32,624 nucleotides of DNA from NCBI GenBank assembly GCA_902529515.1, contig CABZWX010000011.1, positions 1 to 32,624 of the forward strand. Direction: 5' to 3'. This DNA is from an uncultured SAR116 cluster alpha proteobacterium (GTDB lineage: Bacteria > Pseudomonadota > Alphaproteobacteria > Puniceispirillales > Marisalimonadaceae). Both the position numbers and the translations under genes were made by a program. The stretch's first letter is position 1, and the number at the start of each line of letters is the position of its first letter. The notes below the pieces were generated by a model. That model ran no database searches. It was not told the origin of the DNA and saw only the letters and a program-made list of their open reading frames with translations. Shown here one piece after another: positions 1 through 17,093 of this stretch.

Positions 1-133
1 AGGTCGTCAAGCAATACAAACCTTACTAAAGTTCGTCAGGTAAAAATGTTTCGCTATATATCTTCAACGAAGTAGATTTTATAGCTAAACTTATAGCTAA
101 ACATAACAAAAAATCCTTGAAATCCCTAAAAAA

Positions 134-185
134 CGTCAGGCTCATAACCTGAAGGTCGTAGGTTCAAATCCTACCCCCGCAACCA
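134..185 (+). pseudogene. tRNA-fMet 3' half (CAT anticodon), 5' half absent
   Basis: Anticodon arm TCAGG-CTCATAA-CCTGA, then variable region, T arm GTAGG-TTCAAAT-CCTAC, acceptor strand CCCCGCA, discriminator A and encoded CCA. The ending CCCCGCAACCA and this anticodon arm match alphaproteobacterial initiator tRNA. The 5' acceptor strand and D arm are missing: the sequence before 134 has no CGCGGGG or D-arm match. It is therefore a 52-nt remnant, as expected for the displaced end of a tRNA-integrated element. The intact gene would lie left of the window. Confidence 0.8.
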
Positions 186-218
186 ACTATATTTATAAAA
201 TCAATAACTTAGACCGTC

Positions 219-246
219 CTCAAAGACTTCGGTTTTTGGGATTTTT
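219..246 (+). terminator. Rho-independent terminator behind tRNA-fMet fragment
   Basis: Nine-base-pair stem (219-227 with 232-240, two G-T wobbles) closed by a TTCG tetraloop and followed by ATTTTT. It is the tRNA terminator, carried along with the 3' half. Confidence 0.7.
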
Positions 247-314
247 GCTATTTATAATCGTAACTATACCAATATTGGAAATATTAGGTCGTTAGGCTTT
301 TTTATTTTTCTTAA

Positions 315-596
315 TCATAATTCATAGTTTCTATATTTTTTGGCGTGCTTTATAAGCTCTGTTTTATATTCCTCAACAGTGTTACAAACATTTTCAAACT
401 CTAAGAAGTAAAACTTTTCATTTGATGATGCGAAATATCCTTTAACTGTAAGTTTCTCCATTTTAGCGTTTTTATCCTTAATCCCGTGTTGTGCACTTAA
501 AGTTGAAACTATTGAATTAGAATGATCATCATTCATATGTTCAATTATTCTATAAGAAGCTTTTGAAAGCCATTCCGGTAAATCATTTTTCTTCAT
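315..596 (-). CDS. Stand-alone DUF2470 (HugZ C-terminal-like) protein
   Basis: A 93-residue protein with the DUF2470 signature EHMNDDHS at residues 19-26. In HugZ/HutZ heme-utilisation proteins this domain follows a split-barrel domain and contributes to heme or tetrapyrrole binding; here only the C-terminal-type domain is present. It is encoded downstream of the SnoaL-like gene with a 14-bp overlap, so the two are probably cotranscribed and translationally coupled. There is no signal peptide, so it should be cytosolic. A role in heme or flavin handling is inferred from the family only. Its stop codon lies just right of the fading end of the tRNA-fMet repeat. Confidence 0.75.
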   Translation of the reverse strand: MKKNDLPEWLSKASYRIIEHMNDDHSNSIVSTLSAQHGIKDKNAKMEKLTVKGYFASSNEKFYFLEFENVCNTVEEYKTELIKHAKKYRNYEL

Positions 597-1059
597 TTTT
601 TATCTCTGACAAATTAGGATCATCGTTAAATGATCTTTTTAACCACTTTAAAAATACTTTCTCCATTTTTAATGGATTTACACCTAATTGAACCATTGCA
701 AGTCCACCATTAACGGCTTCGCTATAATATTTAATGAATTCATTCTCAAACTCAAAGCAACCGATGCCTGAAATAACAACTGTGCGGCCTTTATAATCAG
801 GTATTTTAGATATAAAACTAAACCTATATTTTACGTAACCTAGGTTATTTTCGAACGCATGATCATACATTTCCCAAAAAAAATCTTCACCATCTCGATG
901 AAAATAATCAGATAGCATTATTGATATATTTTTTCTGCCTCTAAAATTTCCATAAATATAATCATGATAACAGCCATCTTTTGAAAACAAATTAGCCAAA
1001 CTTTCTCCATCGTTTTGGCATACGTATTTAGTGAAAATTTTTGTTAAAGTCTCAAACAT
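583..1059 (-). CDS. SnoaL-like / NTF2-fold protein
   Basis: A 158-residue soluble protein. The N-terminal helix followed by a short acidic-aromatic stretch (SKDGCYHD, near residues 25-32), the R-G-R-KNI segment and the later alternating beta pattern fit the SnoaL-like/NTF2 cone fold. Members are small polyketide cyclases, isomerases or ligand-binding proteins; the substrate cannot be read from sequence. The gene overlaps the DUF2470 gene by 14 bp and is divergent from the cyclase-TPR gene across a 150-bp AT-rich gap. The start at 1059 has a weak GGAATCC-like ribosome site about 10 bp upstream. The fold assignment is moderate because the family is highly variable. Confidence 0.6.
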   Translation of the reverse strand: MFETLTKIFTKYVCQNDGESLANLFSKDGCYHDYIYGNFRGRKNISIMLSDYFHRDGEDFFWEMYDHAFENNLGYVKYRFSFISKIPDYKGRTVVISGIGCFEFENEFIKYYSEAVNGGLAMVQLGVNPLKMEKVFLKWLKRSFNDDPNLSEIKNEEK

Positions 1060-1209
1060 AAAAGGATTCCAATTAATAAATATAATAAAAAATTTTTCTG
1101 AATTTAAATTATAAATATTAAAAATGAATTAACTATTTATTTTATTATAAAATTGCTGTTTCATTTATTTCGATCTTGTAAAAAATTTAAATTTACTTAA
1201 TCTGAATTC

Positions 1210-3177
1210 ATGCCTGCCGAGATAAATCGTAAAATAGCTGTAATATTTGTAGCCGATGTTGTGGGCTACTCTAAACATATGGAAGTAGATGAAAATGGAA
1301 CTCTACAAAGTTATAATGCATGCGAAATAATACTAAATAAACTTTTAAAAAAATATAATGGATCAATATTTAATACAGCTGGAGACTCAGTGCTAGCTGA
1401 ATTTCAAAGTGCTGTAAATGCAGTTGAATGTGGTGTTGAATTCCAGAATGAAATAAAAAAAAGAAATCAGTCTAATAAAACTGAAATGAATTTAGAATTT
1501 CGCATTGGTATAAATATGGGAGATGTAGTTAATAAAGATGGCAATCTTATTGGAGATGGAGTTAATATTGCAGCACGTTTGGAGGCTCTTGCACAACCAA
1601 ACGGCATAACTATATCCAAGAGTGTATATGATTTTGTGGTTCCTAAAACAAAAATCACATTTAATGATCTTGGTGTTCAAAAAGTAAAACAAAATGAATT
1701 TCATGCATTTGATGTACTCTTAGATCCTTCGCAAAGAAGATCTAGCATTAAGAGAGCAAAGATAAACGTTGTCGCTTTAAGTTCTATTGGGTTAGTAGCA
1801 ATGTTGCTTTTAGGGTTTATCTCATTTCAATTCTACAAAAAAAATGAACACTTGAAAGATCCCAGCTTAGAAGACAAACAAGTCGTTCTTGTTCTTCCAT
1901 TTCAAAATTTAGCAAATTCATCTGAACATAATTTTATATCAGAGAGTATGCTTGATCTATTTGTAAGTGGTTTGTCAGGTTATGAAAATTTGAAAGTGCT
2001 TTCTAAAAATACCAGTCTGTTAGCAGCAAAAAAAAATCTGCAAAAAAAAGAATTAATTAATAGTTATAACGTAAGATACCTACTGAGTGGTTCTGTAACT
2101 GTTTTTGGGAAAAATATGAGAACGAATATTGAAATTCGTGATATAAAAAACAATCAAATACTCCTTTCACAATTAAAAAATTCTAAAACTGATGACTTAT
2201 TTAAAGTTCAAGATGAATTGGTGCTATCAGTTCTTTCTAAATTTAATCTTGAAGAGGATAAAATTCGTGTGTCAAATGACGATATTGAAACAATAGAAGA
2301 ATTAAGACTTCTCCAATTTGCTGCAAAAGAAAGGGAAAAGTGGTCAAAAGAAGGTTATTTTGATTATGAAAAAGCCTTAGACAAGCTATATAAAATTAAT
2401 CCAAATGGATATGCGCATAATTTAAGTCAGGCATGGAAACATCATTACAAATTTAGACTCGGTTTTTGTAAACCAAAAAGTAATAAAGCATCAAAAAAAG
2501 AACGAAGAGTAGCGTCAACTGCATGCTTTTTAAAAGCAATGGAATTTGCAACTAAAGCAATTGAAATAAATCCTGATAAAGCTGATGCATATTTAGCACA
2601 AGGTTATTTTTTAGCTTCGGCGCATATCTTAAATCGTGATGGAGACAGAGCCAATGAATGGGGTGGACTTAAAAAAGCTGGAGAATTTGCCGAAAAAGGT
2701 TATAGCCTGATAAACAATAATTCTTATCAATATGGACTTGCAGGAGAAGTGTTTACACTTTGTAACAAGTTTGAAAAAGCAACTGCTTCTTTTAAAAAAT
2801 TATTTGAGTTAGATGATAATCCCTCAGATACATTCACTTCATTTTATATGCAGGCAAGTTTTTTAAATAACGATCTAAAGAAAGTAAAACAACTAGCAAA
2901 AAAAATTATATTAGATAGAAAGAATTCTGATGAAATTGACAACTGCAAAAGTCCTTTTTGTGGAAATGCAGGATATGCAAATGTATTTCTTTTATATGTT
3001 TATGAACAAGAAAAAGACTCTGAAAATCAGAAAAAATATTTACGAGAATACAATCAATTGGAAAATAAATATACAAAAGCTATGTTTACAGGTAGGACAA
3101 ACCCAGCTAATTTTATATGGTCAAAAGAATTTAAGAAAATTATCGAAGTAATGGATACTTTAGGATGGCATGAATAG
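1210..3177 (+). CDS. Membrane class III cyclase with C-terminal TPR region
   Basis: A 655-residue protein. Residues 8-170 form a class III nucleotide cyclase domain with both metal Asp residues (D16 in FVADVVGYS, D59 in NTAGDS) and the transition-state pair N119/R123 in VNIAARLE. One transmembrane helix spans about 186-208. Residues 225-350 resemble the TolB/FlgO-like module of this family, with the motif VLVLPFQNLAN, and from about 440 there are TPR-like helices (KAIEINPDKADAYLAQGY). The usual adenine-specifying Lys and Asp/Thr positions are N55 and N112, so the product and even the activity are uncertain. The gene lies between the two tRNA-fMet modules, so it may be element cargo. Confidence 0.85.
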   Translation: MPAEINRKIAVIFVADVVGYSKHMEVDENGTLQSYNACEIILNKLLKKYNGSIFNTAGDSVLAEFQSAVNAVECGVEFQNEIKKRNQSNKTEMNLEFRIGINMGDVVNKDGNLIGDGVNIAARLEALAQPNGITISKSVYDFVVPKTKITFNDLGVQKVKQNEFHAFDVLLDPSQRRSSIKRAKINVVALSSIGLVAMLLLGFISFQFYKKNEHLKDPSLEDKQVVLVLPFQNLANSSEHNFISESMLDLFVSGLSGYENLKVLSKNTSLLAAKKNLQKKELINSYNVRYLLSGSVTVFGKNMRTNIEIRDIKNNQILLSQLKNSKTDDLFKVQDELVLSVLSKFNLEEDKIRVSNDDIETIEELRLLQFAAKEREKWSKEGYFDYEKALDKLYKINPNGYAHNLSQAWKHHYKFRLGFCKPKSNKASKKERRVASTACFLKAMEFATKAIEINPDKADAYLAQGYFLASAHILNRDGDRANEWGGLKKAGEFAEKGYSLINNNSYQYGLAGEVFTLCNKFEKATASFKKLFELDDNPSDTFTSFYMQASFLNNDLKKVKQLAKKIILDRKNSDEIDNCKSPFCGNAGYANVFLLYVYEQEKDSENQKKYLREYNQLENKYTKAMFTGRTNPANFIWSKEFKKIIEVMDTLGWHE

Positions 3178-3200
3178 TTGTTGTAAATTTTTAATGCTTA

Positions 3201-3254
3201 TTATTTTTTCTTACTCTTCCAATCACCACTGTGTTGATAGTTATTTAAAAGAAA
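3201..3254 (-). pseudogene. 3' remnant of a small zinc-ribbon gene
   Basis: The last 14 codons before the TAA at 3201-3203 read NNYQHSGDWKSKKK and match the end of the ORF at 6564-6752 (STYQYGGTWKGKKK), with similarity also visible at the DNA level. An in-frame TAA at 3255-3257 cuts the frame, and upstream sequence does not resemble the longer copy. This is a truncated paralogue. It ends just before a GTTCGTCAGG motif (3261-3270) and the right tRNA-fMet module, so truncation may have accompanied an integration event; that part is inference. Confidence 0.5.
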
Positions 3255-3393
3255 TTATTGGTTCGTCAGGCACCACATTTTTTAAATAAAGCTCACAATT
3301 TAAACTGTTTGGCTATAAGATTAAATGAAAATCAATTTTTATAGCCAAACTTATAGCTAAACATAACAAAAAACCCTTAAAATCTCTAAAAAA

Positions 3394-3445
3394 TGTTAGG
3401 CTAATAACCTAAAAGTCATAGGTTCAAATCCTACCCCCGCAACCA
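3394..3445 (+). pseudogene. Diverged tRNA-fMet 3' half (anticodon loop CTAATAA)
   Basis: Same 52-nt extent as 134-185. The T arm, acceptor strand and CCA are unchanged, but the anticodon loop is CTAATAA, so the CAT anticodon has become AAT, and the stem is TTAGG/CCTAA. The stem change is paired (C137 to T and G151 to A relative to the left copy). The 5' half is absent, so it cannot act as an initiator tRNA. Confidence 0.75.
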
Positions 3446-3478
3446 ACTATACAAACAAAATCAATGACTTAGATTACC

Positions 3479-3509
3479 TTCAAAAATTCTGTTTTTGGGA
3501 TTTTTTTTG
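3479..3509 (+). terminator. Terminator behind second tRNA-fMet fragment
   Basis: Eight-base-pair stem (3479-3486 with 3492-3499), five-base loop, then A and eight T. It is equivalent to 219-246 with a decayed loop. It faces the convergent end of the phosphatidylcholine synthase gene. Confidence 0.55.
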
Positions 3510-3548
3510 TTTTTTAATCTTTATACCATTAATCATATCAACTGGACA

Positions 3549-4286
3549 TCAGGTTTTTTTTAATTTTTGATAAAGTCTAGATGATAATAAATTAGAAAAA
3601 ACTACGAATAAAATAAAATAACTATTAAATATTAACCATAAAACTAAAAAATAAAAATAAAAATCATTTATAAATTTTACTTCTAGTTTACTCATTAACA
3701 AAATTGAACTTGTAAGAAGTGTTCCAAATAAAAAAAAGATATTAGTTTTTTTAAAGGCAACATTTCGCATTGGGTGAATAACTCTAAATGGAACAAACTT
3801 AAGTAATATAAATAATAAGATAATAAATAAGTTTATCCATTGATTAAAACTCAAAATTTCTAAGTACAATAAAATTACATTCCAAATAGAAGGAAATCCT
3901 ATGTACGAAAATGATGTGTCAACTAACTTGGTATTTACATAAGAATAAAGAGAAACACATATGATGAAAATTGGTATGATTATTGTGAAGTCAGGAGGTA
4001 AATAACCAAACTTATATATTATTATACAAGGTATAAAAATATAATTTATGTAATCAATTATTGTATCTAGAGTCTTTCCGTCAATATTTGGAAAAATTAT
4101 TTCTGTTTTGTATTTTCGAGCTAAGGTTCCATCAACAATGTCAACTAGCAATGCAATACCCAAAAACATAAAAGTTAATAATTTGTAACCCTCAATAACG
4201 GATACTAATGCCATAAAGCTAAATATTATTCCAGAACCAGTAAAGATATGCACTAAACAAGCAGGAATTTTTTGGACATTTTTCAT
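3549..4286 (-). CDS. pcs: Phosphatidylcholine synthase
   Basis: A 245-residue inner-membrane protein with several hydrophobic segments. It contains the CDP-alcohol phosphotransferase motif in the spacing typical of Pcs: DG-x2-AR-x12-G-x3-D-x3-D, reading DGTLAR ... DGKTLDTIIDY. Pcs condenses choline with CDP-diacylglycerol to give phosphatidylcholine and CMP in one step, a pathway best known in alphaproteobacteria and some pathogens; the length fits the family. It would let the cell use external choline for membrane lipid. It is divergent from the UnbV-type gene. Its 3' end lies directly beside the right tRNA-fMet repeat, so it marks the border of the putative island or is cargo of it. Confidence 0.85.
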   Translation of the reverse strand: MKNVQKIPACLVHIFTGSGIIFSFMALVSVIEGYKLLTFMFLGIALLVDIVDGTLARKYKTEIIFPNIDGKTLDTIIDYINYIFIPCIIIYKFGYLPPDFTIIIPIFIICVSLYSYVNTKLVDTSFSYIGFPSIWNVILLYLEILSFNQWINLFIILLFILLKFVPFRVIHPMRNVAFKKTNIFFLFGTLLTSSILLMSKLEVKFINDFYFYFLVLWLIFNSYFILFVVFSNLLSSRLYQKLKKT

Positions 4287-4435
4287 TTAACAAACTACTA
4301 AACTAGAATTACTTGAAAATATTATTAGTAAATAATAATTATGAAATTGATATAATCTTAACCTTATAAATTACAACTCATGATTTTAAAAATTTAATTC
4401 ATTGAAAATTTTTACAGAAATAATATATACATCAA

Positions 4436-5854
4436 ATGAAAACAATAATTACGCTAATCTTCATCTTAATGTTTAATCCTTCTTTTGGTGAATTTTTCCA
4501 AGACATATCTGACTCAATCAAAAATAATCAAAAAAGATTAAGTTATGGGGTTTCTGTAACTGATTTTAATAAAGATGGAAAGTTTGAGTTTGTTGTTACA
4601 GGATTTAAATTTCCTAATTTAATTTTGTCCCACAAGAATGGTTTTTTAGAAAATATTAATACAAATAATTTGTTTGCTGACCAGGCTAGATCCACGATTG
4701 GAGTAGCTGCATGCGATATTGATAATGATGGTTTTGAAGAATTATATTTTCTTAATACTGATACATATAGTGGCCAAAAACAGTTTTCTGATCGATTACT
4801 TGATAATAACAAAGATATAAAAGATTTATTTCAACTTGATAAAAACTTGAGATCTTTAAATTTAACAGCGGGAAGGTCAGTTGTGTGTGTAGATCGAAAT
4901 GGTGATGGTAAGTATGGGATTTATGTTGCTAATTATGGTGGCCCAACCCGTTTTTATGAACTAAAAAATGGAAGCATTGTAGACCAAGCACCGTTACTAA
5001 ACATCAACAGAATTACTGGGGGAAGAGCAGTTATTGCAGGCCACATCTTAAGTAATTATATGGATATTTTTGCAGCAAATGAGAGAGGACCAAACTTTCT
5101 TTATGTAAATGAAAATGGCACATTTAAAGATGTTGCAGAAAGCCTGGGTGTTGAAGATACATTTGAAAATGGTCGAGGTACGACGCTTACTGATTTTTTA
5201 TATAGAGGTAAATTAGATATTGTTAGTGGTAATTGGAATGGTGAACACAGAATTTTTTTAAATAACAGAAACAAGTTTAATGACATTGCTAATTCTGAAT
5301 TCAAAATTCCATCAAGAGTAAGAACTATAATTTCAGCCGATTTTGATAATGATGGTTTTGATGAAATTTTTGTAAACAATATTGGAGAGCCCAATAAACT
5401 TTTTAAAATCTTAAGTGATGGAAAATTAAAACAAATTCAACTAGGTAACGGACTAGAACCTTTAGGATTAGGTACAGGTGCAGCCGTAGCAGATATAGAC
5501 AACGATGGCATTCTTGAATTACTAGTTTCACATGGTGAATCAGGGTTGCAACCACTTTCTTTATTTAAAGCAAATATAAAAAAATCTTTCAATTTTTTAA
5601 GAGTTTTACCAAAAACACCCTTCAATGCACCAGCTAGAGGAGCTACTGTAATACTCAATACTAATATGAGAAATCACGCAAAAACTATTGATGCTGGGTC
5701 TGGTTATTTATGCCAGATGGAGCCCGTTGCTCATTACGGACTGAGAAATGGAGAAAAAGTTAATAGTGTTACAATTAGATGGACTGACGGATCGTCAGAT
5801 AATTTTAATATAAGCCAATTTAATAAAACTTATGTTTTTCGAAAAGGTATTTAG
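4436..5854 (+). CDS. Exported FG-GAP/VCBS repeat protein with ASPIC/UnbV domain
   Basis: A 472-residue protein with a signal peptide (about residues 1-19). Calcium-loop repeats of the FG-GAP/VCBS type recur: DFNKDGKFEF (43-52), DIDNDGFEEL (94-103), DRNGDGKYGI (153-162), DFDNDGFDEI (302-311) and DIDNDGILEL (353-362). The C-terminal part (about 400-465) is an ASPIC/UnbV domain with GSGYLCQMEP, HYGLRNGE and WTDGS. Such CRTAC1-like proteins are predicted seven-bladed propellers, periplasmic or extracellular; the molecular role is unknown. The next gene overlaps it by 23 bp, so the two are probably one transcription unit. Confidence 0.85.
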   Translation: MKTIITLIFILMFNPSFGEFFQDISDSIKNNQKRLSYGVSVTDFNKDGKFEFVVTGFKFPNLILSHKNGFLENINTNNLFADQARSTIGVAACDIDNDGFEELYFLNTDTYSGQKQFSDRLLDNNKDIKDLFQLDKNLRSLNLTAGRSVVCVDRNGDGKYGIYVANYGGPTRFYELKNGSIVDQAPLLNINRITGGRAVIAGHILSNYMDIFAANERGPNFLYVNENGTFKDVAESLGVEDTFENGRGTTLTDFLYRGKLDIVSGNWNGEHRIFLNNRNKFNDIANSEFKIPSRVRTIISADFDNDGFDEIFVNNIGEPNKLFKILSDGKLKQIQLGNGLEPLGLGTGAAVADIDNDGILELLVSHGESGLQPLSLFKANIKKSFNFLRVLPKTPFNAPARGATVILNTNMRNHAKTIDAGSGYLCQMEPVAHYGLRNGEKVNSVTIRWTDGSSDNFNISQFNKTYVFRKGI

Positions 5855-6560
5855 ATTGGTGTTAAGACTCAGCCCTTATTTCATCTTATCTTTATTATTT
5901 ATTATTACAAATGTAGTTGTTTCTTCAGCAAATGATAACAAAGGTAAATATTATCAAAGTCTATCTAAAGACTGGAGGTCAATTTTTCCAGATGGAAACA
6001 GAAATGCAGCTGGACCAAAATTTTATAAACATATTTCAAATAAATATAAGAATTTTTCAGAGTTTAAAGAATATAACAAACATTATTGTGCTGTTTCAGG
6101 ATCTTTGATTGCAGAAAATTCAACACCACAATTTATAAATATAAAAGAGGATATAACTGAAAAAGAAGTTTGTGGTTACTACTACAAATGCTGTTGGCCT
6201 TGTGTATGTGACTTAATGAAATACGCTAAAGTTAAAAAGATAACAAGGGAATTTAAAGAAGGTAACAAGGTTGTATACGCATTAGTTATAGATAATCCAT
6301 GTATAAAGAATGATTTTCCTAAAAAAGTTAATAAGAATTATTTTTGTAGAGGCAATCAATTAGACGATGAACAAGTGGAAATACAAGATGGTAAATTAAT
6401 AATTGGAATGTTACATGAAGCAAAATATTGTGAGCCTTCTGATTTAAGAAAAATATATGCTAATAAGATAACAGGAAGATTTTGTCCATATAGAAATAGT
6501 ACTCCCATTGATGAATTAAAATCTGGCATGGGGGATGTGTTTATAAAGTTAGCAAGATAA
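5832..6560 (+). CDS. Exported cysteine-rich protein, unknown function
   Basis: A 242-residue product that I do not assign to a named family. A hydrophobic stretch at about 13-33 ending in SSA looks like a signal peptide. The exported part holds ten cysteines (86, 114, 120, 121, 124, 126, 157, 172, 200, 218), including the dense motif CCWPCVC. This fits either five disulfides or a metal site. It overlaps the UnbV-type gene by 23 bp. TTG (5856) or GTG (5859) just after that gene's stop are alternative starts that would still leave the hydrophobic segment. The coupling suggests that the two exported proteins act together; this is inference. Confidence 0.6.
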   Translation: MFFEKVFRLVLRLSPYFILSLLFIITNVVVSSANDNKGKYYQSLSKDWRSIFPDGNRNAAGPKFYKHISNKYKNFSEFKEYNKHYCAVSGSLIAENSTPQFINIKEDITEKEVCGYYYKCCWPCVCDLMKYAKVKKITREFKEGNKVVYALVIDNPCIKNDFPKKVNKNYFCRGNQLDDEQVEIQDGKLIIGMLHEAKYCEPSDLRKIYANKITGRFCPYRNSTPIDELKSGMGDVFIKLAR

Positions 6561-6563
6561 TAG

Positions 6564-6752
6564 CTATTTCTTCTTACCCTTCCATGTACCACCATATTGA
6601 TAGGTACTGTTAAATTCAATTTTTATCTTCATTAGACAGTTCCCACATAGAAACACCCAATACTTCCTTTCATCGTATCTACAACGATACAAAATATCTT
6701 TGTATGTAGAGCATTTAAAAAATTGTTTTGTTCTTATTATAGGAATTGGCGA
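6564..6752 (-). CDS. Small zinc-ribbon-like protein, start unclear, possibly decayed
   Basis: Open frame of about 61 residues from PIPIIRTKQFFKCSTY to GTWKGKKK, ending at TAG (6564-6566). It has CSTY (residues 13-16) and CGNC (35-38), so the first knuckle is CxxY instead of the usual CxxC. There is no ATG or GTG near its 5' end; only ATT or ATA codons are available before an in-frame TAA at 6753-6755. A TTG-initiated frame shifted by one base lies just upstream, so the gene may be frameshifted. The C-terminus is repeated in the remnant at 3201-3254, which argues that it is or was a true gene. The rest of the gap, 6753-6896, holds nothing recognisable. Confidence 0.45.
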   Translation of the reverse strand, partial: SPIPIIRTKQFFKCSTYKDILYRCRYDERKYWVFLCGNCLMKIKIEFNSTYQYGGTWKGKKK

Positions 6753-6896
6753 TTAGAATTTTTCAACTACATCTTTACTTCGCTAAATATATTATAGCCC
6801 TAGTAGGAAATTGAGTATTTTCTCTTTTCATACATATTTATTTTATTAAATAATTATAGTTTACAACACAACTATTCAATTTAAAGTATTATAGAA

Positions 6897-7451
6897 ATGA
6901 AAGATTTTCAAAAATTAGATGATTTTTTAAACTTTGGCTGGGCACAAATTTATCGTGGTAAGGCAGATAAAAAATCGCCCGCAAGACATCCCACATTTGT
7001 GACTTCAAGTGCTGATGGTTTCCCGAATGCTCGTACTTTAGTTATGAGACGGTGTGATCAAAAAAATAACCAGATAGAATTCCATACTGACACCGCTTCT
7101 TCAAAAATGTTTGCACTCAAGGAGAATCCTCGCGCTGCAATTCACATTTGGTTGCCAAAAGTGCAATTACAAATTCAGATGGACGTTATTGTTGAAGTGA
7201 AAGTTGGAGACATTACCATTAAAAACTGGAGAAATGTTCCAACTTACTCTAGGATCGCTTATGGAACTATTCCCAACTCTGGTAGTGTCATTGAAGGTCC
7301 CTTTGACTATGATCATGCACCAGATCAGAAACGTTTTGCCGTATTATTATGTGATATACAATCAATTCAACTACTGCTTTTGGGTGTAAAACATATTCGT
7401 GCTCATTATAAAAAGACAACAAATTGGCAAGGTGAGTGGCTCTCACCCTAG
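6897..7451 (+). CDS. Pyridoxamine-phosphate-oxidase-like FMN protein
   Basis: A 184-residue PNPOx-type split-barrel protein. The FMN-site pattern is visible as ARTLVMRRCD followed by FHTDTASSK, the usual strand pair and phosphate-binding Lys/Ser-Lys region, with IHIWLPK for the next strand. It lacks the full PdxH C-terminus, so a role as the vitamin B6 enzyme is unlikely. Family members bind FMN or F420 and reduce or sense small substrates. It stands alone with 183 bp of AT-rich sequence before the next gene, which is also a split barrel. Cytosolic. Confidence 0.75.
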   Translation: MKDFQKLDDFLNFGWAQIYRGKADKKSPARHPTFVTSSADGFPNARTLVMRRCDQKNNQIEFHTDTASSKMFALKENPRAAIHIWLPKVQLQIQMDVIVEVKVGDITIKNWRNVPTYSRIAYGTIPNSGSVIEGPFDYDHAPDQKRFAVLLCDIQSIQLLLLGVKHIRAHYKKTTNWQGEWLSP

Positions 7452-7634
7452 CTTGTAAATTTATTAAAATTTATACTATATACAAGCAAAACAATTTTTT
7501 AGTCTACTTCACAAATATCTATAATTTTTCATATTAAATTTTTCATAATTTAAGTACCCAATTAATTTACTTTTTATATGTTTTAAATTAAATTTAAACT
7601 AGTTTGTTAATAATTTAAACTTTTTGGAAAAATC

Positions 7635-8105
7635 TTGATACCGAACTTAACAATAAATGCATTAGAGCAGGGATTAGGTCATTTTGGAGTTTCGTCCAAA
7701 AACAATAAAACAGTGCATGTAGACACTTTAGGTGTAAAAACTGATAACATACAATCCACACTTACTTGTTTTGTAATAAATTCTGAGTGTAAAAATGTTT
7801 TGCAATACTTAAATGAGTCTGGAAGGGTTAGTTTTTTTGTTGGTATGATAAGTCATGAAGCTTATAATTTTAAAGGCCAATTTGTCTCCTCAGAAAAATT
7901 AAATTATGAAGATCTTAAAATATCAGAAAATTATAGAAATAATGTTATTGATGTTATCATTAGTGTGGGTTTGTCAAAAGAAGCTGCTTTAGATAAATTT
8001 GGGAAAGTGCCAGACCTTGGCATAACTTTTAAAGTTGACAAAGTCTATATTCAAACACCAGGCCCAAATGCTGGTAAAGAAATAACTAATAGTGAAACCA
8101 AATGA
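7635..8105 (+). CDS. Small split-barrel (PNPOx-like) protein, cyclase operon member
   Basis: A 156-residue protein of the FMN-binding split-barrel type. The stretch GRVSFFVGMISHEAYNFKGQF matches the strand-turn-strand that positions cofactor and substrate in the fold, and the end PDLGITFKVDKVYIQTPGPNAG resembles the closing strand. TTG at 7635 is the only plausible start, with GGAAAAATC ahead of it. Its stop overlaps the next gene by four bases (ATGA), a sign of translational coupling, and a GAF-cyclase follows. FMN, heme or another ligand could bind; this cannot be decided here. Confidence 0.65.
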   Translation: MIPNLTINALEQGLGHFGVSSKNNKTVHVDTLGVKTDNIQSTLTCFVINSECKNVLQYLNESGRVSFFVGMISHEAYNFKGQFVSSEKLNYEDLKISENYRNNVIDVIISVGLSKEAALDKFGKVPDLGITFKVDKVYIQTPGPNAGKEITNSETK

Positions 8106-8485
8106 TTAAAGATAAGCACATGCCAGCATTACAAGGAATGTTTCCAAGTTGGATTACAAGTTGTTCATCTGATGGTGAGCCAAACACCACTGTGATATCC
8201 CAGATATGGTATGTAGATGAAAACCATGTAGCTCTCTCATTTCAGTTTTTTAATAAGACAAAGAAAAATATTTCTGAAAATCCATATGCCTATGCAACAA
8301 TTTCAGATCCTAGCACATTAAAACAATACAACTTAGAATTGAAATTTGATCATGAAGAAACTGCAGGTGAATTATTTGATGAAATGGATATGAAATTACA
8401 AGCCATAGCGTCTATGACGGGTATGACAGGTATCTTTAAATTAAGAGCAGCTGATGTATATAAAGTTATATCAATAAGTGAGTAG
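8102..8485 (+). CDS. Split-barrel (PNPOx family) protein coupled to GAF-cyclase
   Basis: A 127-residue protein. WITSCSSDGEPNTTVISQIWYVDENHVALSFQFFNKT is the N-terminal split-barrel strand set, and GIFKLRAADVYKV is the typical last strand. From memory, this version of the domain (ending in TGMTG-F-LRAADVY) also occurs fused ahead of GAF-sensor proteins; here it is a separate gene 31 bp upstream of one. The start overlaps the previous stop (ATGA). Likely role: a cofactor-binding input subunit for the cyclase, or an enzyme acting in the same process. That role is inferred from gene order. Confidence 0.75.
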   Translation: MIKDKHMPALQGMFPSWITSCSSDGEPNTTVISQIWYVDENHVALSFQFFNKTKKNISENPYAYATISDPSTLKQYNLELKFDHEETAGELFDEMDMKLQAIASMTGMTGIFKLRAADVYKVISISE

Positions 8486-8516
8486 TTTTAATTAAATTTT
8501 TTTTAAATTATGAAGT

Positions 8517-10022
8517 ATGTCAGTTTGCATGGATAAAATTTCACAATCTAAAAATGAATTAGAAAATATTAAAATTCTTCTTGATAGAAAATCAAAAGAA
8601 ATCGAAATAATCAAACAAATTTCTAATCAAATAAATAAATCTCTCGATTTAAACTTAATTGCTTCTTCAATGCTATCATTAATGAATGAATTTTTTGGAT
8701 TTAAACACTCTATGATTTTACTAGTTTCTGAAAATAAAAAATATCTCAACGTTTTAGAAACTTATGGATATGAAAAAAGAGGGATTGGTGCAAAAGTTGA
8801 ATTTGGTGTTGGAGTAATTGGCATAGTTGCTGAAAAGAAAAAACTCATGAGAATGGCAAATTTAGGAATGCAGAGAAGTTATATGCAAGCAATTCGTGAA
8901 CAAGTTCAAATTACTAATAAAAATAAATTACAGGACAAAGTTGAATTGCCAGGTCTCAAAAACGTGGAAAGTCAGGTCGCAATACCAATGCTTATAGATA
9001 ATGAGCTCGTTGGTGTATTTTCTGTTGAAAGTGAAAAAATGAACATTTTCGATAAATCTGATGAAATATTGATTGGAATATTAGCAAATCAAACTGCTAG
9101 TGCTTTAGAAAATGCAAGACTTTATCAACTTGAGCAAAAAAGATTAAAAGAATTAAATAAAGCTCATCAAGAACTGGAGAGTTTAAACATAAATCTCGAA
9201 AAAAAGGTTGAGGAAAGGACCTCTGAATTGAAAGCACTTTCAGAAAAGTTGTCAAAATACTTTTCACCTCAAGTTTATGAGTCAATATTTTCAGGCAAAC
9301 TAGACGTAAAGGTCCAAACAAAGCGAAAGCCTTTGACAGTCTTTTTCTCAGATTTGCAAGGTTTTACAGAATTAACTGAAAGATTAGAACCTGAGGTTTT
9401 AACAGAACTTCTAACCCAATATCTAACAAAAATGTCTAATGTCGCTATTAAATGGGGTGGGACAATAGACAAATTTATTGGTGATGCGATTTTAGTTTTT
9501 TTTGGAGACCCTAATTCAAGGGGAGACGAAGAAGATGCAATAGCGTGTGTTTCGATGGCAATGGACATGTTAGAAGAACTCAACAAGCTTAGAATTTCGT
9601 GGAGAAAAAAAGGATTAGCGAAACCTTTAAATGCGCGAATGGGAATCCATACTGGAGTGTGCACAGTTGGAAATTTTGGTTCTGAAGATAGACTAGACTA
9701 CACGATTATTGGTAACGGTGTAAACTTAGCATCTAGGCTTGAGGCAAGAGCTGGTATTAACAAAATTTTATTGTCAGAAGACACATATTTATTAATTCGA
9801 AATAAAATTATCTGTGAAAAAAAAGAGGCTATTAATGTGAAGGGTATTTCTTATCCTGTTCAAACATATGAAGTTGTAAAATTTTCGTTGGAAAATGATA
9901 ATTTGATTGAAAGAAATATTCCAGGTTTGTCTTTATCTATTGATAAGTCAGAGATTGAAGATAATAAAATTGCAATTAAGGTCGTTTCTGAAGTTTTGAA
10001 GGATTTAAAATCAAAGTCTTAA
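8517..10022 (+). CDS. GAF-domain class III adenylate cyclase
   Basis: A 501-residue cytosolic protein. An N-terminal helix (10-40) leads to a GAF domain (about 40-200, with ESQVAIPML-like core and LVGVFSVES), a signalling coiled coil (about 200-250) and a class III cyclase domain (about 265-440). Catalytic residues are complete: metal Asp D279 and D323, adenine-specifying K319 and T396, transition-state N403 and R407. Lys plus Thr is the class IIIb pattern, so ATP to cAMP is expected. It follows two split-barrel genes on the same strand. The catalytic half is closely similar to the PAS-cyclase at 12269-13462, so the two are paralogues. Confidence 0.9.
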   Translation: MSVCMDKISQSKNELENIKILLDRKSKEIEIIKQISNQINKSLDLNLIASSMLSLMNEFFGFKHSMILLVSENKKYLNVLETYGYEKRGIGAKVEFGVGVIGIVAEKKKLMRMANLGMQRSYMQAIREQVQITNKNKLQDKVELPGLKNVESQVAIPMLIDNELVGVFSVESEKMNIFDKSDEILIGILANQTASALENARLYQLEQKRLKELNKAHQELESLNINLEKKVEERTSELKALSEKLSKYFSPQVYESIFSGKLDVKVQTKRKPLTVFFSDLQGFTELTERLEPEVLTELLTQYLTKMSNVAIKWGGTIDKFIGDAILVFFGDPNSRGDEEDAIACVSMAMDMLEELNKLRISWRKKGLAKPLNARMGIHTGVCTVGNFGSEDRLDYTIIGNGVNLASRLEARAGINKILLSEDTYLLIRNKIICEKKEAINVKGISYPVQTYEVVKFSLENDNLIERNIPGLSLSIDKSEIEDNKIAIKVVSEVLKDLKSKS

Positions 10023-10146
10023 CCTCAAGTAGCTATAAATTGATTACACTGCTCATTCAAAAGTATATTTGTAATTTGATTGCATAATTTTTATAGATAG
10101 CGTTTGTAAATTACAAATTTAAATTACGCTCGTTAAAATTGTCATT

Positions 10147-10716
10147 TTAATCATTTTTGCAAAGTGGTTTAACAACCTCAAAATTATCCCCTTCGGTGTC
10201 AAATACATAGATTTGTTTTTTTCTAATACCTTTAAAGTTCTTACTTTGAACTAAAACTCCCAAGGATTTGTCGGATTGAGAAAAATAGTTAAATGTTTTA
10301 ATTATTGGTTCATTAAAGTACATTTTTTCTTTGTTTTGATAATTAAATTTTCGAAAAAATTTTAAAATATTGATATTTAGATCTTTATTATTCGGAAAAG
10401 GTATATCTTGAAACCAAACTGGTTTTCCTTTTATACAAGTTGACTTGGTTGGAATTGGGCCATTAATTATTCTGTAATATTTGACCCAACTAATTTTAAC
10501 TTTGTTTCCCTTATTTCCAAACCATAGCAGACATTTTCTATAGTCTTTAGTTTCACAGTTTCTTGTTTTAAAAAAAAAATTTGAAATTTTAAATTCTTTT
10601 ATAGGTTTAGTACAAGTCTTACCTAAACAAAGTTTGTCAATATCAAAAGTATTATTTTGAGCAAAAGAATTATTAGAAATTACAAAAATTGTCATTAATA
10701 ATAAGATTTTTATCAT
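10147..10716 (-). CDS. Exported protein of unknown function
   Basis: A 189-residue protein with a clear signal peptide (MIKILLLMTIFVISNNSFAQ), probably cleaved near residue 20. The mature part is basic and rich in Phe, Asn and Lys, with several spaced cysteines (LCLGKTC, NCETKDYRKC, TCIKG, PLCKND). No family is recognised. It is predicted to be periplasmic. The gene follows the cupin gene on the same strand after a 13-bp gap, so it may be the last member of that transcript. It converges with the GAF-cyclase gene across 124 bp. Confidence 0.6.
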   Translation of the reverse strand: MIKILLLMTIFVISNNSFAQNNTFDIDKLCLGKTCTKPIKEFKISNFFFKTRNCETKDYRKCLLWFGNKGNKVKISWVKYYRIINGPIPTKSTCIKGKPVWFQDIPFPNNKDLNINILKFFRKFNYQNKEKMYFNEPIIKTFNYFSQSDKSLGVLVQSKNFKGIRKKQIYVFDTEGDNFEVVKPLCKND

Positions 10717-10729
10717 TAAAAAATTCTTC

Positions 10730-11212
10730 TTATTTTCTCTGCCCGTATATTACTCCTTTTTTCCAATTGTCTACATATTCTTCTATCGATAATGTCCACC
10801 CATTTTCCATATTTTCATCAAAATATTCAAATAATATTCCATTAGGCGCATTCATTGACAATAGTACTGTTCCCCCATCTTCGCCTCCACGCTCATCGTG
10901 TGGAAGTGCATCAGCACCTGCTAAGGCATAATCTCCTTTTTTTCTCACGATAGATTTTTTGGATCCGTCTGATTGCCATTCAGTTAAGTGTTGTTCACCC
11001 TCTAAAACCATTGTTAATGTTGAAGCTACATGTCTATGTCGTCTACAGTGACTTAAATTAGCATACCTTAATAGCATATCAAGGCGCCCTGATTTAATAT
11101 CATATCCTAGAAGACTATAATCAAAGTCAACTTTAAAATCCTTATTTTCGGGATCTTTAACGTTTCGCCATTCTACTAGTTTTGGATTAAAACTCTTAGA
11201 TATCATATTCAT
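10730..11212 (-). CDS. Cupin-domain protein
   Basis: A 160-residue single-domain cupin. The first cupin motif is visible as SHCRRHRHVASTLTMVLEGEQH with candidate metal ligands H59, H61 and H75, and the second as DALPHDERGGEDGGTV with H105. Small cupins of this type are metal-dependent dioxygenases, isomerases or ligand-binding proteins; no substrate can be assigned. There is no signal peptide. It sits 124 bp downstream of the PanB-like gene and 13 bp upstream of the exported protein gene, all on the minus strand. Confidence 0.75.
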   Translation of the reverse strand: MNMISKSFNPKLVEWRNVKDPENKDFKVDFDYSLLGYDIKSGRLDMLLRYANLSHCRRHRHVASTLTMVLEGEQHLTEWQSDGSKKSIVRKKGDYALAGADALPHDERGGEDGGTVLLSMNAPNGILFEYFDENMENGWTLSIEEYVDNWKKGVIYGQRK

Positions 11213-11336
11213 AAGTATTATTCCTTTTATAATTTAAAAATTAATTTTTATTAGATGATAGTATTAAAGTTTATTAGACTATCCAATAATTTTACTTATT
11301 TTGGTGCAATATTCTAAATAATTCAAATACGATTTT

Positions 11337-12188
11337 TCATTTTTTTATATATTTTTCAAGTGCATTTGCAACGTCATCATTAGCGCTTACAGTAACGTCC
11401 TTATATGGAAATTTATTTTCCTTTACATCTTTAACATAATTTTTAAAAGCATTTATTCTCGTTAGTTGTAACTTTTGTTTTAACTCATAAAGATTAGCAT
11501 ACTGCTTTGAATGACGTGGAAATGGTCCTTTAGTGTTACCTAAAATATCTTCTGCAAATAAAAATTGTATGTCTCCAATACCACTTCCTAAAGATGATGT
11601 AATTAATGAAGTTTGTGGAGATAGAATGGCCATAATATTTTCTGGTATAACCTCCACTTCAACAGCCCATACACCTATATTTTCAAGAATTTTAATATCA
11701 TCATAGAGTTTTTTAGCTTGTTTTACTGTTTTTCCTACTGCCTTAAACCCCCCTGTCCAAGTGCTTCGTCTAGGCACAAGTCCTATGTGACCTTCAGTCG
11801 GTATACCTGCATGAGCGACAGCTTCAATAAATTTTAAACCCCATGTTCCGCATATTACAGAATCGGCTCCAAGTTCCATCGCATCAAAAGATAATCTTAA
11901 AGCATCATATTCGGATTTTGCAGACTGCATCGGAAGCGCAAAACTCATAAATGTATTTGGAGCAGCAGCTCTTAGAGCTTTGGAAATCTCAGGTCTTTCT
12001 GGATTATGCCTTATATTAAGTGTCTCAATACCAGCAGTCTCAGCAGCTTCAGCTTCTTCTTCTGAAAAAGGAATTGTTTTCGTAAGCTGACGTTTACCTT
12101 TGTATGACTGAATGTCTGCAACAGTAAAATTTCTTAAACTATATTCTCCAGAAACAGTCATTATTTTCTTAGTATTTTTTGTTTTCAT
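11337..12188 (-). CDS. Divergent PanB-like protein (ketopantoate hydroxymethyltransferase fold)
   Basis: A 283-residue TIM-barrel protein of the PanB / PEP-mutase superfamily. GIPTEGHIGLVPRRSTWTGG and FKAVGKT match the PanB stretch GHIGLTPQ...G(Y/F)KVQGK, and AVEVEVIPE matches the region of the PanB catalytic Glu (residue 179 or nearby). However, the segments that supply metal ligands in true PanB (GDSLGM and KIEGG) read NIRHNPE and VICGTW here. It may therefore use a different substrate or have lost PanB activity. It is encoded 80 bp downstream of the PAS-cyclase on the same strand, followed by the cupin gene. Confidence 0.7.
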   Translation of the reverse strand: MKTKNTKKIMTVSGEYSLRNFTVADIQSYKGKRQLTKTIPFSEEEAEAAETAGIETLNIRHNPERPEISKALRAAAPNTFMSFALPMQSAKSEYDALRLSFDAMELGADSVICGTWGLKFIEAVAHAGIPTEGHIGLVPRRSTWTGGFKAVGKTVKQAKKLYDDIKILENIGVWAVEVEVIPENIMAILSPQTSLITSSLGSGIGDIQFLFAEDILGNTKGPFPRHSKQYANLYELKQKLQLTRINAFKNYVKDVKENKFPYKDVTVSANDDVANALEKYIKK

Positions 12189-12268
12189 TTTTTCTTATAC
12201 ACTATAAATTTAAAGTTTAATTGAGTACTTAAGGTTTATTTTAATCAAATTGCTTTGCGAGTAAATTT

Positions 12269-13462
12269 CTAAGTCATAGACTTTTTTATTTTCGATAACA
12301 TACTCTCTAAAGAGGAAATGACCTGATCTTTTGAAGAAACATTTAAATCTACATTTAAATTAAATCCCTCATATTCCTCATTTAAAAGTAGATTATTCTT
12401 TGTTAGATTTTCACTTGTGTCTAAAATTTGATATGTTTGTATTTTGTGAGATATACCTTTAACACTCAATTCTTCTTTTTTGTCACAAACAATATCTTTT
12501 TTAATTAGAGAGTAAGTTTCATGAGAAATGAGAATTTGTCCAGGTTCGGAATTGGATTCAAGACGACTAGCTAAATTTACTTCCCCGCCTATAATGGTAT
12601 AATCTAATCTATCTTCAGATCCAAAATTTCCTACATTGCAAAATCCTGTATTAATACCTATTCTAACTTCTAAGGGATTTGTAATTCCTTGATCTTCCCA
12701 TATCTTCCTTAAATGTTTCATCCGCTCTCTCATTTCTAAAGCCATTAGAGCACACGCTTTTGCGTCTTCTTTTTCGCCTTTTGTTTCAGGGTCACCAAAA
12801 AATATTAAAATAGCGTCACCAACAAATTTATCTATGGTTCCACCATGTTTTAAAGCTATTTGTGACATTTCATTCAGGTAGCTATTGAGTAATGAACTTA
12901 ATACTTCAGGCTCTAATCTATCAGTAATTTCAGTGAAGCCTTTAATATCTGAAAAAAACACTGTAAGTTTTTTTCTATAGGCTTCAATTTTTACATTTTT
13001 CTTTCCAGAAAATATTGATTTATAAACTTGAGGTGATAAATACTTTGACAATTGTGATGCAAGTTGCTCAATTTTATCTTGCGCTTTCACTCTTTGAGTT
13101 ATGTCAACTACAGTCCACAAAACTTCATCTTCATCTGCAACAGGGTCTCCAGCAATCTTAAACCAAATCTCTTCACCATCTTTTTTTTTGAATGGCCAAT
13201 CTAAATTTACGGTTTTTTTATTTCTTACTTGGTTAAAAGCCTTTTCACCAAATTCTTTAAACATTTGATTTGAGATGTGTATTATCTCAGCACTATTACC
13301 TATGAGTTCGTCTTTTTTATAACCTAGTATTTCACAAAATTTTGGGTTTACTTCAATTAGCCTACGATTTTTATCTACTATCATAATACCCACTCCAGTA
13401 TTAAAAAATACTTGTTTGAACCTCGATGATAATTGATTACTTTTGACCACTACTATACTCAT
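12269..13462 (-). CDS. PAS-domain class III adenylate cyclase
   Basis: A 397-residue cytosolic protein from the ATG at 13462; an upstream TTG at 13495 is possible but less likely. It has one PAS domain (about 10-120, GVGIMIVDKNRRLIEVN, LGYKKDELIG), a short linker helix, and a class III cyclase domain (about 160-330) with D172, K212, D216, T289, N296 and R300, the full class IIIb set. cAMP production is expected. The gene starts only about 50 bp after the ABC-transporter ATPase stop on the same strand, so it may be read with the sugar operon and couple uptake to second-messenger output. It is a paralogue of the GAF-cyclase. Confidence 0.9.
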   Translation of the reverse strand: MSIVVVKSNQLSSRFKQVFFNTGVGIMIVDKNRRLIEVNPKFCEILGYKKDELIGNSAEIIHISNQMFKEFGEKAFNQVRNKKTVNLDWPFKKKDGEEIWFKIAGDPVADEDEVLWTVVDITQRVKAQDKIEQLASQLSKYLSPQVYKSIFSGKKNVKIEAYRKKLTVFFSDIKGFTEITDRLEPEVLSSLLNSYLNEMSQIALKHGGTIDKFVGDAILIFFGDPETKGEKEDAKACALMALEMRERMKHLRKIWEDQGITNPLEVRIGINTGFCNVGNFGSEDRLDYTIIGGEVNLASRLESNSEPGQILISHETYSLIKKDIVCDKKEELSVKGISHKIQTYQILDTSENLTKNNLLLNEEYEGFNLNVDLNVSSKDQVISSLESMLSKIKKSMT

Positions 13463-13513
13463 AACTTTATAAAACGATACAAGTTGAAGACCCAAAATTT
13501 AAGAATAAATATT

Positions 13514-14569
13514 TTAAATTAATCTTAAACCATCCTTAGAAAAGAAGTGCACATATTTAGAAATAAGCTTTAAGCCTATCTTCTCATTGAGGATAACTTT
13601 AAAATTTGGGTCTAGTTTTACTATAATTAGTTTATCATTAATTCCACAATCAACATAAACGTACTGTTCAGAACCTAAGTATTCACAAAATTTTATGTAA
13701 CCACTCAATATATTTTTTTTAGATTTGCATATTTCTATATTATCCGGTCTTATTCCCAGCTTGAATATACTCTCTTTTTTTGTTTTAATATTTGTCTTTT
13801 TATTTTTATCAAAATAAATATATCCTTCTTTTTTAAAGCACTTTAAAATATTCATCTTTGGTGTACCAATAAATTCTGCAACAAATAAATTTTTTGGAGA
13901 ATTGTAAAGTTTGTGTGGAGAACCAATTTGAATAATTTTTCCTTCGTTAAGAACAACTATCTTATCTGCTAGTGTCATTGCTTCAACTTGGTCATGAGTA
14001 ACATAAATTGTAGTCACTCCAAGTTCTTTATGCAATTTTGAGATTTCCAAACGCATTTCAACTCTCAGTGCTGCATCTAGATTAGATAGTGGTTCGTCAA
14101 ACAAGAAAGCTTTGGGTTTCCTTATAATTGCTCTTCCAATTGCAACTCTTTGTTTTTGTCCTCCAGATAGTTGTTTAGGAAGTCTATGTAACAGATCTTC
14201 TAATTGAAGAATTTTTGCAACTTCTCCAACTTTTGTTTTTAAAATATCACTGTTTACACCTGAGGTTTTCAAAGAAAAACCTATGTTATCAAAAACATTC
14301 ATGTGGGGATATAGTGCATAAGATTGGAAAACCATTGATAGGCCACGGTCGTATGGAATTTTATCTGTTACATCCAAATCGTCAATTAAAACAGTTCCTT
14401 CATTTAAATCTTCAAGACCAGAGATGATTCTTAAAAGTGTTGATTTTCCACATCCTGAGGGACCTACAAAAACAATGAACTCTCCATCTTTGATATTTAA
14501 GTTAACATTTTTGATTACTTGATTACTCGAAAACCATTTTGAGATATTTTGTAAAATAATAGAAGCCAT
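13514..14569 (-). CDS. Sugar ABC transporter ATPase, MalK/UgpC family
   Basis: A 351-residue ATPase from ATG 14569 (a GTG one codon earlier is possible). Walker A GPSGCGKST (36-44), Q82, signature LSGGQ (134-138), Walker B AFLFDEP (154-160) and switch H192 are all intact. A shortened C-terminal TOBE-like regulatory domain follows from about residue 235. It should energise the MalF/MalG-type permease encoded upstream. It lies seven bases after the hydrolase stop, the last transport gene of the operon. Confidence 0.93.
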   Translation of the reverse strand: MASIILQNISKWFSSNQVIKNVNLNIKDGEFIVFVGPSGCGKSTLLRIISGLEDLNEGTVLIDDLDVTDKIPYDRGLSMVFQSYALYPHMNVFDNIGFSLKTSGVNSDILKTKVGEVAKILQLEDLLHRLPKQLSGGQKQRVAIGRAIIRKPKAFLFDEPLSNLDAALRVEMRLEISKLHKELGVTTIYVTHDQVEAMTLADKIVVLNEGKIIQIGSPHKLYNSPKNLFVAEFIGTPKMNILKCFKKEGYIYFDKNKKTNIKTKKESIFKLGIRPDNIEICKSKKNILSGYIKFCEYLGSEQYVYVDCGINDKLIIVKLDPNFKVILNEKIGLKLISKYVHFFSKDGLRLI

Positions 14570-14579
14570 CACATACTCA

Positions 14580-17092: not shown

Positions 17093-17093
17093 C

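What the first reader, a model, noticed from the sequence alone, without database searches (positions are those of the whole stretch)
48..3510. Two tRNA-fMet 3'-half modules with integrase-like arm repeats bracket a 3-kb segment
The two modules share the order inverted 12-mer, two direct 12-mers (TTATAGCYAAAC), tRNA 3' half and terminator, with nearly equal spacing (31 and 32 bp). Each lacks a 5' half. This is what repeated integration into an initiator tRNA gene would leave, with displaced 3' halves at the far side. The cargo between (DUF2470, SnoaL-like, cyclase-TPR) may be a small satellite-like or decayed island, and no integrase is visible.
Basis: partly seen in the sequence, partly recalled or inferred. 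Interest (0 to 1): 0.7.

Follow-up and report, generated by a model that had tools for sequence, protein, structure and literature searches.

The report
Phage-ended gene cassettes beside initiator tRNA
In SAR116 ocean bacteria, small blocks of useful genes sit in a row beside the initiator tRNA gene, many of them bounded by attachment-site ends like those of free temperate phages but with no phage-type integrase of their own, which suggests that visiting phages shuffle these genes between species.

Summary
Confirmed: two tRNA-fMet 3' halves, each behind integrase-type arm repeats, flank 3.26 kb. They belong to a wider pattern. In SAR116 relatives an intact tRNA-fMet (in G034 right after the 5S rRNA gene) is followed by arrays of such halves: 87 displaced halves in 42 of 46 stretches examined (29 of 31 genomes). 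Typical segment: half, terminator region, P' arms, cargo, P arms. IMG/VR phages carry the same arms (types A, B, C, E) as attP sites, with tyrosine integrases nearby; one viral contig joins a type C phage to an intact tRNA-fMet with a SAR116-like spacer. Right-end gene and arm type stay linked (85 of 85 pairs) while the next gene changes (same in 5 of 48 pairs, second locus left out). One locus gives an empty/filled comparison. Of 764 array ORFs none matched phage proteins except ORFs across the tRNA half; the only integrases found (318 aa, three stretches) belong to another family. Best reading: an additive island of integrase-less cassettes bounded by phage attP halves, probably moved by phage integrases in trans. 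That last step is inferred. The window cassette has type A right arms and decayed, probably type B, left arms; it may no longer move.

The parts
34..40 (+). CGTCAGG core-like repeat before the arms of module 1; the same at 3264-3270 before module 2
   Evidence: also present before the arms in other type A modules and in phage attP
48..59 (-). inverted arm of module 1 (2 mismatches)
   Evidence: read by eye
79..102 (+). two direct type A P arms of module 1
   Evidence: same arms in 6 IMG/VR phage contigs
134..185 (+). tRNA-fMet 3' half 1, from the crossover core CGTCAGG to ACCA
219..246 (+). terminator-like hairpin and T run after half 1
   Evidence: hairpin 219-240; number of hits not above chance; similar stretch follows the half in relatives and phages
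261..297 (+). decayed P' arms, probably type B, at the left end of the cassette
   Evidence: by alignment with the intact P'B of the same cassette in G005, G003, G019; on its own below the typing threshold
315..596 (-). cargo: DUF2470 protein, 93 aa (cluster c22)
583..1059 (-). cargo: SnoaL-like protein, 158 aa (c23)
1210..3177 (+). cargo: cyclase-domain protein, 655 aa (c2)
   Evidence: named relatives are SAR116 single-cell records
3307..3318 (-). inverted type A arm of module 2 (exact)
3339..3362 (+). two direct type A P arms of module 2, right end of the cassette
   Evidence: type A arms at the right end of this gene in 5 of 5 junctions
3394..3445 (+). tRNA-fMet 3' half 2, degenerate
3549..4286 (-). 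right neighbour: CDP-alcohol phosphatidyltransferase (c4), start of the flank shared with relatives

Best explanation
The 3-kb segment is one cassette of an array at the initiator tRNA gene of SAR116 bacteria. A typical cassette reads: core, tRNA-fMet 3' half, terminator region, P' arms, cargo genes, P arms, next core. If its two cores recombined, the circle would carry an attP built like that of a free temperate phage (P arms, core, half, terminator, P' arms). Shown: the arrays, the arm types, phage attP sites of the same types with integrases nearby, constant linkage of right-end gene and arm with changing neighbours, matching P' and P types in most segments typed at both ends, and two extra cassettes exactly at one half in one genome where six relatives have a single half. 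Inferred: a tyrosine integrase supplied by an infecting phage recombines a cassette circle with a half or with the intact gene; entry at the intact gene restores the tRNA and pushes the older half outward. The window cassette has decayed, probably type B, left arms and type A right arms, so it may be a fusion of two cassettes and may be fixed.
For: Arrays: 87 displaced halves in 42 stretches, 29 genomes. Right-end gene and arm type agree in 85 of 85 pairs, permutation mean 15.0, 0 of 10000 as high; without the second locus 64 of 64, while the next gene is the same in 5 of 48. P' and P types match in 18 of 23 segments typed at both ends, permutation mean 12.0, 0 of 10000 as high; P' arms follow 15 of 17 intact genes and 55 of 87 displaced halves. 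Empty/filled comparison at base level, 6 genomes against G009. Phage attP of types A (6 contigs), B (13 contigs), C (6 contigs with P' arms), E-like (L150, L190, L157). L149: intact tRNA-fMet with SAR116-like upstream spacer, P'C arms, 371-aa integrase, phage genes. No phage protein among 764 array ORFs apart from ORFs across the half; only the 318-aa integrase family in three stretches.
Against: No circle, no excision and no transfer was observed. Type A and B integrases have no close relative in the 61 genomes, so the supposed helpers are not resident. 5 of 23 typed segments are mismatched (all B-A, the window's type), and P'A was found in no array. 32 of 87 displaced halves have no typed P' arms, 21 of 87 no arm call. 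The window's own half 2 and P' arms are degenerate. L266 lacks arms and half, L273 most of the cyclase, so ordinary deletion also shapes the locus. Homologous recombination between halves could mimic part of the shuffling. Type D phages were not found.
Confidence: 0.62

Rival explanations
1. Decayed prophages or islands: each segment entered as an integrase-bearing element that later lost its integrase and phage genes, leaving its ends around genes that it carried.
For: Ends are attP halves of real phages; partial halves, lost halves and truncated cargo occur; a 318-aa integrase gene and 3'-end fragments of it sit in or near some arrays.
Against: 389 phage proteins found nothing in 764 array ORFs apart from ORFs across the half. 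Cargo gene and arm type stay linked across genomes with different neighbours, which independent decay would not give.
Confidence: 0.17
2. Shuffling by ordinary homologous recombination between the repeated half-plus-terminator stretches (about 125 bp), with no current site-specific recombination; the ends are only old scars.
For: The stretch is repeated and often nearly identical. Degenerate ends such as the window's persist. Flank genes of G003 and G019 are as similar to the window as the cassette genes are.
Against: Does not explain why P' and P types match in 18 of 23 segments, why 15 of 17 intact genes are followed by P' arms, or the phage origin of the arms.
Confidence: 0.16
3. Packaged phage satellites: the cassettes are small satellites that travel in helper capsids.
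For: Size (59 segments, median 2662 bp) and phage-type ends. A type-B-arm-like repeat pair lies between terS and terL of type B phages, which could hint at a shared recognition site.
Against: The window cyclase has no relative in IMG/VR by this search. The contigs found by type A arms carry phage genes, 6 of 6. No replication or packaging gene is among the 20 cargo and flank proteins run against Pfam.
Confidence: 0.05

Closest known systems
Additive flexible genomic islands with a tRNA as insertion target (Alteromonas PMC4119200, Actinomarinales PMC7771536, Methylophilaceae fGI-2 PMC10872708; passages seen)
   Same: A tRNA gene at one end, variable number of gene cassettes, repeats of the tRNA 3' part, cargo with metabolic genes, in streamlined marine bacteria
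   Different: Here the cassette ends are resolved into phage P and P' arms of several types and matched to phage attP sites; the passages seen do not describe this
Tycheposons (Prochlorococcus; seen only through passages of PMC10872708)
   Same: Cargo elements at tRNA genes, tRNA-Met among the targets in Methylophilaceae
   Different: Described there with a tyrosine recombinase and 4-200 kbp; here segments have a median of 2.7 kb and nearly all lack one
tRNA-targeted genomic islands as in Islander (PMC4383910, passages)
   Same: Restored tRNA gene and displaced 3' fragments as end points
   Different: Islander requires an integrase in each island; it lists 4 tandems of three or more. Arrays like these would be rejected
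Integrons
   Same: Works like one: cassettes with a recombination site each, in tandem, shuffled between strains
   Different: No attC/attI pattern was sought and no IntI was found nearby; sites are phage att sites in a tRNA gene
Temperate phages of types A, B, C, E in IMG/VR
   Same: Same P arms, core, 3' half; types B, C, E also share the P' arms with arrays
   Different: Phages carry integrase, lysis, terminase or repressor genes; the cassettes do not

Membership tests
Additive flexible genomic island at a tRNA | Cassettes of varying number and order next to a conserved tRNA | tested here: met
Additive flexible genomic island at a tRNA | Direct repeats of the tRNA 3' part at cassette ends | tested here: met
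Tycheposon | Located at a tRNA gene and carrying cargo | tested here: met
Tycheposon | Own tyrosine recombinase | tested here: not met
   None in the window segment; profile hits only in 3 of 46 stretches, another family
Islander-type genomic island | Integrase gene inside the island | tested here: not met
Integron | IntI integrase and attC sites | not tested
   No attC search and no IntI model were run; only a profile from 12 phage-type integrases was used
Prophage or prophage remnant | Phage genes between the attachment sites | tested here: not met
   (389 phage proteins against 764 ORFs)
Prophage or prophage remnant | Phage attachment-site ends | tested here: met
Phage satellite (PICI, PICMI) | Packaging in helper capsids | not testable with these tools
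   Only indirect: no relative of the cyclase found in viral contigs

The most novel reading that the evidence does not exclude
An integron-like gene-exchange system without a resident recombinase: cassettes with complete phage-type attP ends lie in arrays at tRNA-fMet, and several temperate phage families (A, B, C, E) supply integrases in trans during infection, so that phage infection powers cassette traffic among SAR116 species. Host DNA caught between two phage scars can itself become a new cassette, which would explain mixed B-A ends like the window's.
Probability: 0.42. Interest if true: 0.8.

Novelty: new variant of a known kind. Interest (0 to 1): 0.62.

Why it matters
Additive islands at tRNA genes are a source of gene variation in streamlined ocean bacteria, but how cassettes without an integrase move is unclear. 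Here their ends can be read as attP halves of identifiable phage families, which names candidate recombinases and makes the question directly testable. Island searches that demand an integrase miss such arrays.

Tried and rejected
Initiator tRNA in the window's genome: not found; 16 tRNAs pass the cut-off and the one tRNA-Met called is not the initiator by its sequence.

The 318-aa integrase (L075, L074, L076) was first taken for the array's recombinase. Its upstream side carries arms and, in four loci read, a 3' half of another tRNA with anticodon CAT (probably elongator Met, by eye), so it seems to belong to another site; only its 3' end is fused to the fMet core.

Type F 'arms' turned out to be the end of a dispersed repeat. 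A first threshold for P' typing used a background that still held true arms and was replaced; one search had typed 35 of 104 halves, typed 70. No exact type D match in viral contigs. The GTGGCTAACTRCAAAC scan returned 20 contigs that I did not analyse; type C was settled with other patterns. Cyclase in viral contigs: 25 stretches matched a pattern, no relative. The terL search of 61 genomes was empty; without a positive control it shows little. Structure prediction was not used.

Partial data: one search did not list all its matches, and I fetched a part. Array counts rest on 46 stretches from 31 of the 37 same-genus genomes (own included); 4 stretches hold no displaced half. Order-level loci (L077, L079-L083, L093) were left out of the counts. 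At least two of the 87 halves (G012) match another CAT tRNA. In the arm test 49 of 87 junctions qualified; there A/E calls were set to E, F2 to F, and the c2 cluster was split by length.

Full report
Observation. The window starts with an arm array and a tRNA-fMet 3' half and repeats the arrangement 3260 bases later. The 12-mer is far above chance (5 matches against 0.80 expected, 0 of 100 shuffles reach 5). No tRNA gene is called in the window. The own assembly (1.28 Mb, 79 contigs, 62% complete) holds a third half on contig C33 and no initiator tRNA: 16 tRNAs pass the cut-off, and the only tRNA-Met called differs from the initiator.

Who it is. Named records that encode a relative of the 655-aa cyclase are SAR116 cells, among them AG-359-O10, AG-899-L08, AG-430-M22 and SCGC AAA015-N04 (11 loci).

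Arrays. 50 of 61 genomes searched match the module (this counts intact genes and distant tRNA matches too). In G034 the order is 16S, tRNA-Ile, 5S, tRNA-fMet. 17 genomes show an intact tRNA-fMet on the strand of the array, 14 of them with displaced halves on the same stretch; in G035 the intact gene lies on the other strand. In 46 stretches from 31 genomes there are 87 displaced halves, in 42 stretches and 29 genomes, up to 6 in one genome. Upstream of the cores lie arm repeats of several types, A to G; 66 of 87 have an arm call. 59 segments lie between neighbouring halves, median 2662 bp, range 903-17573.

Cassettes. ORF clustering shows the same gene blocks in different orders: multicopper oxidase - cytochrome c - DUF4396 and CopC-CopD with type D ends, an ATP-grasp / Alpha-E / transglutaminase / proteasome-like block and a polysaccharide lyase with type B (functions), and the window block with type A. 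Gene beside the arm and arm type agree in 85 of 85 same-family pairs (49 junctions, 13 families; permutation mean 15.0, 0 of 10000 as high). Leaving out the second locus, which looks vertical, it is 64 of 64, while the gene after the half is the same in only 5 of 48 pairs (20 of 69 with that locus).

Both ends. After half and terminator region many segments carry a second arm set, then CGTCAGG, then cargo. Typed against a background from the same arrays, P' arms follow 55 of 87 displaced halves (37 B, 18 C) and 15 of 17 intact genes (13 B, 1 C, 1 E). So the 3' part of most intact genes seems to have come with an element. Of 23 segments typed at both ends as A, B, C or E, 18 match (14 B-B, 3 C-C, 1 E-E; permutation mean 12.0, 0 of 10000 as high); the other 5 are B-A. 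P'A was found in no array.

Phages. The exact 3' half is in 62 IMG/VR stretches, many of them with an intact tRNA gene. Type A arms are in 6, and all 6 carry a type A integrase gene (one cut by the contig end). The type B pattern is in 16: 13 have an attP (2 cut by the contig end), 3 only the terS-terL repeat. Type C P' arms or P arms are in 6 contigs, each with a 371-379-aa integrase; P arms of type C were seen by BLAST in two of them. E-like attP sites are in L150, L190 and L157; L190 has a 386-aa integrase. PHROGs names integrases, endolysin, terminase subunits and a repressor. The attP order is lysis genes, P arms, core, half, terminator region, P' arms, then the integrase side. L149 shows the integrated form: an intact tRNA-fMet with the spacer seen in SAR116 loci, P'C arms, a 371-aa integrase and phage genes on one 4.7-kb contig. 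This ties a type C phage to this host group.

Empty and filled site. At a second locus without an intact tRNA nearby, six genomes share P C arms - core - half - P'C - gene c34. G009 has the same left flank up to the core and the same right flank from its last half, with two extra cassettes between. The first of these is B-B, the second has P'B and type F ends.

Absence of machinery. 389 phage proteins hit 14 of 764 array ORFs, all of them ORFs across the tRNA half. A profile from 12 integrases hits three ORFs, all the 318-aa family. Type A and B integrases find only weak matches in 61 genomes (1 and 5 genomes, 25-34% identity), whereas PF00589 rings in 60 of 61, so integrases as such are seen. 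The assemblies are incomplete, and an integrated phage could be missing from them.

The window cassette. The block DUF2470 - SnoaL - cyclase with type A right arms is also in G003, G005, G019 and L263, with three kinds of left neighbour. Its left end is P'B in G005, G003 and G019 and decayed in the window; the half before it is missing in G003 and G019. Against G005 the cyclase is 98.0% identical, c22 and c23 91.1 and 92.7%, flank genes c4, c12 and c13 94.7, 87.3 and 89.6%; against G003 and G019 cassette and flank are alike (93.9-98.0%). So the window's own pair gives little evidence of recent transfer. L266 lacks arms and half, L273 most of the cyclase: ordinary deletion acts too.

Judgement. 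The sequences show cassettes with phage attP ends and their turnover; that phage integrases act in trans is inferred. Papers: passages of PMC10872708, PMC4119200, PMC7771536, PMC9038755 and PMC4383910; others only in listings. The searches listed no paper on SAR116 tRNA-fMet cassettes or on phage attP ends of additive islands, judging by titles and abstract starts in an open-licence library. The original tycheposon paper was not among the listings. That G042 is Puniceispirillum marinum IMCC1322 is recalled from its contig length.

Noticed in passing
L075 4648-5604, L076 4627-5583, L074 10144-11100; fragments in L124, L086, L087, L125-L128: A 318-aa integrase gene whose stop codon lies inside the tRNA-fMet core (the anticodon loop read backwards). 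Copies of only its last ~48 codons sit beside the core behind A, B, C and D arms.
   Followed up: partly
G000:C1:180805-180914, C33:5987-6066, C29:321-374, C29:3594-3634; also L086, L087, L126, L129, L130: A dispersed, comparatively G+C-rich noncoding repeat of about 115 bp; 4 matches in the own genome and further copies in relatives' loci.
   Followed up: partly
L210 2535-2568, L206 6967-7000, L217 14418-14451, L221 1440-1473: In type B phages a pair of type-B-arm-like repeats followed by CGTCAGG lies beside the terminase gene (between terS and terL in L210), about 9 kb from attP.
   Followed up: no
L065 after 8042, L056 after 13627; phages L207, L208, L210, L213, L216: Some cassettes share with type B phages about 60 bases beyond the P' arms, including a promoter-like TTGACTTATAGGCATA...; cargo may be read from a phage promoter.
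   Followed up: no
L060 8165-8346, L072, L246, L254, L258, L259; L066 filled: A second chromosomal locus with an attachment site of type C on both sides of one half and no tRNA gene on the stretch, conserved in six genomes.
   Followed up: partly
L077 9496-9543 and 9856-11268: In G042, of another family of the order, a 470-aa integrase gene lies beside a tRNA-fMet 3' half.
   Followed up: no
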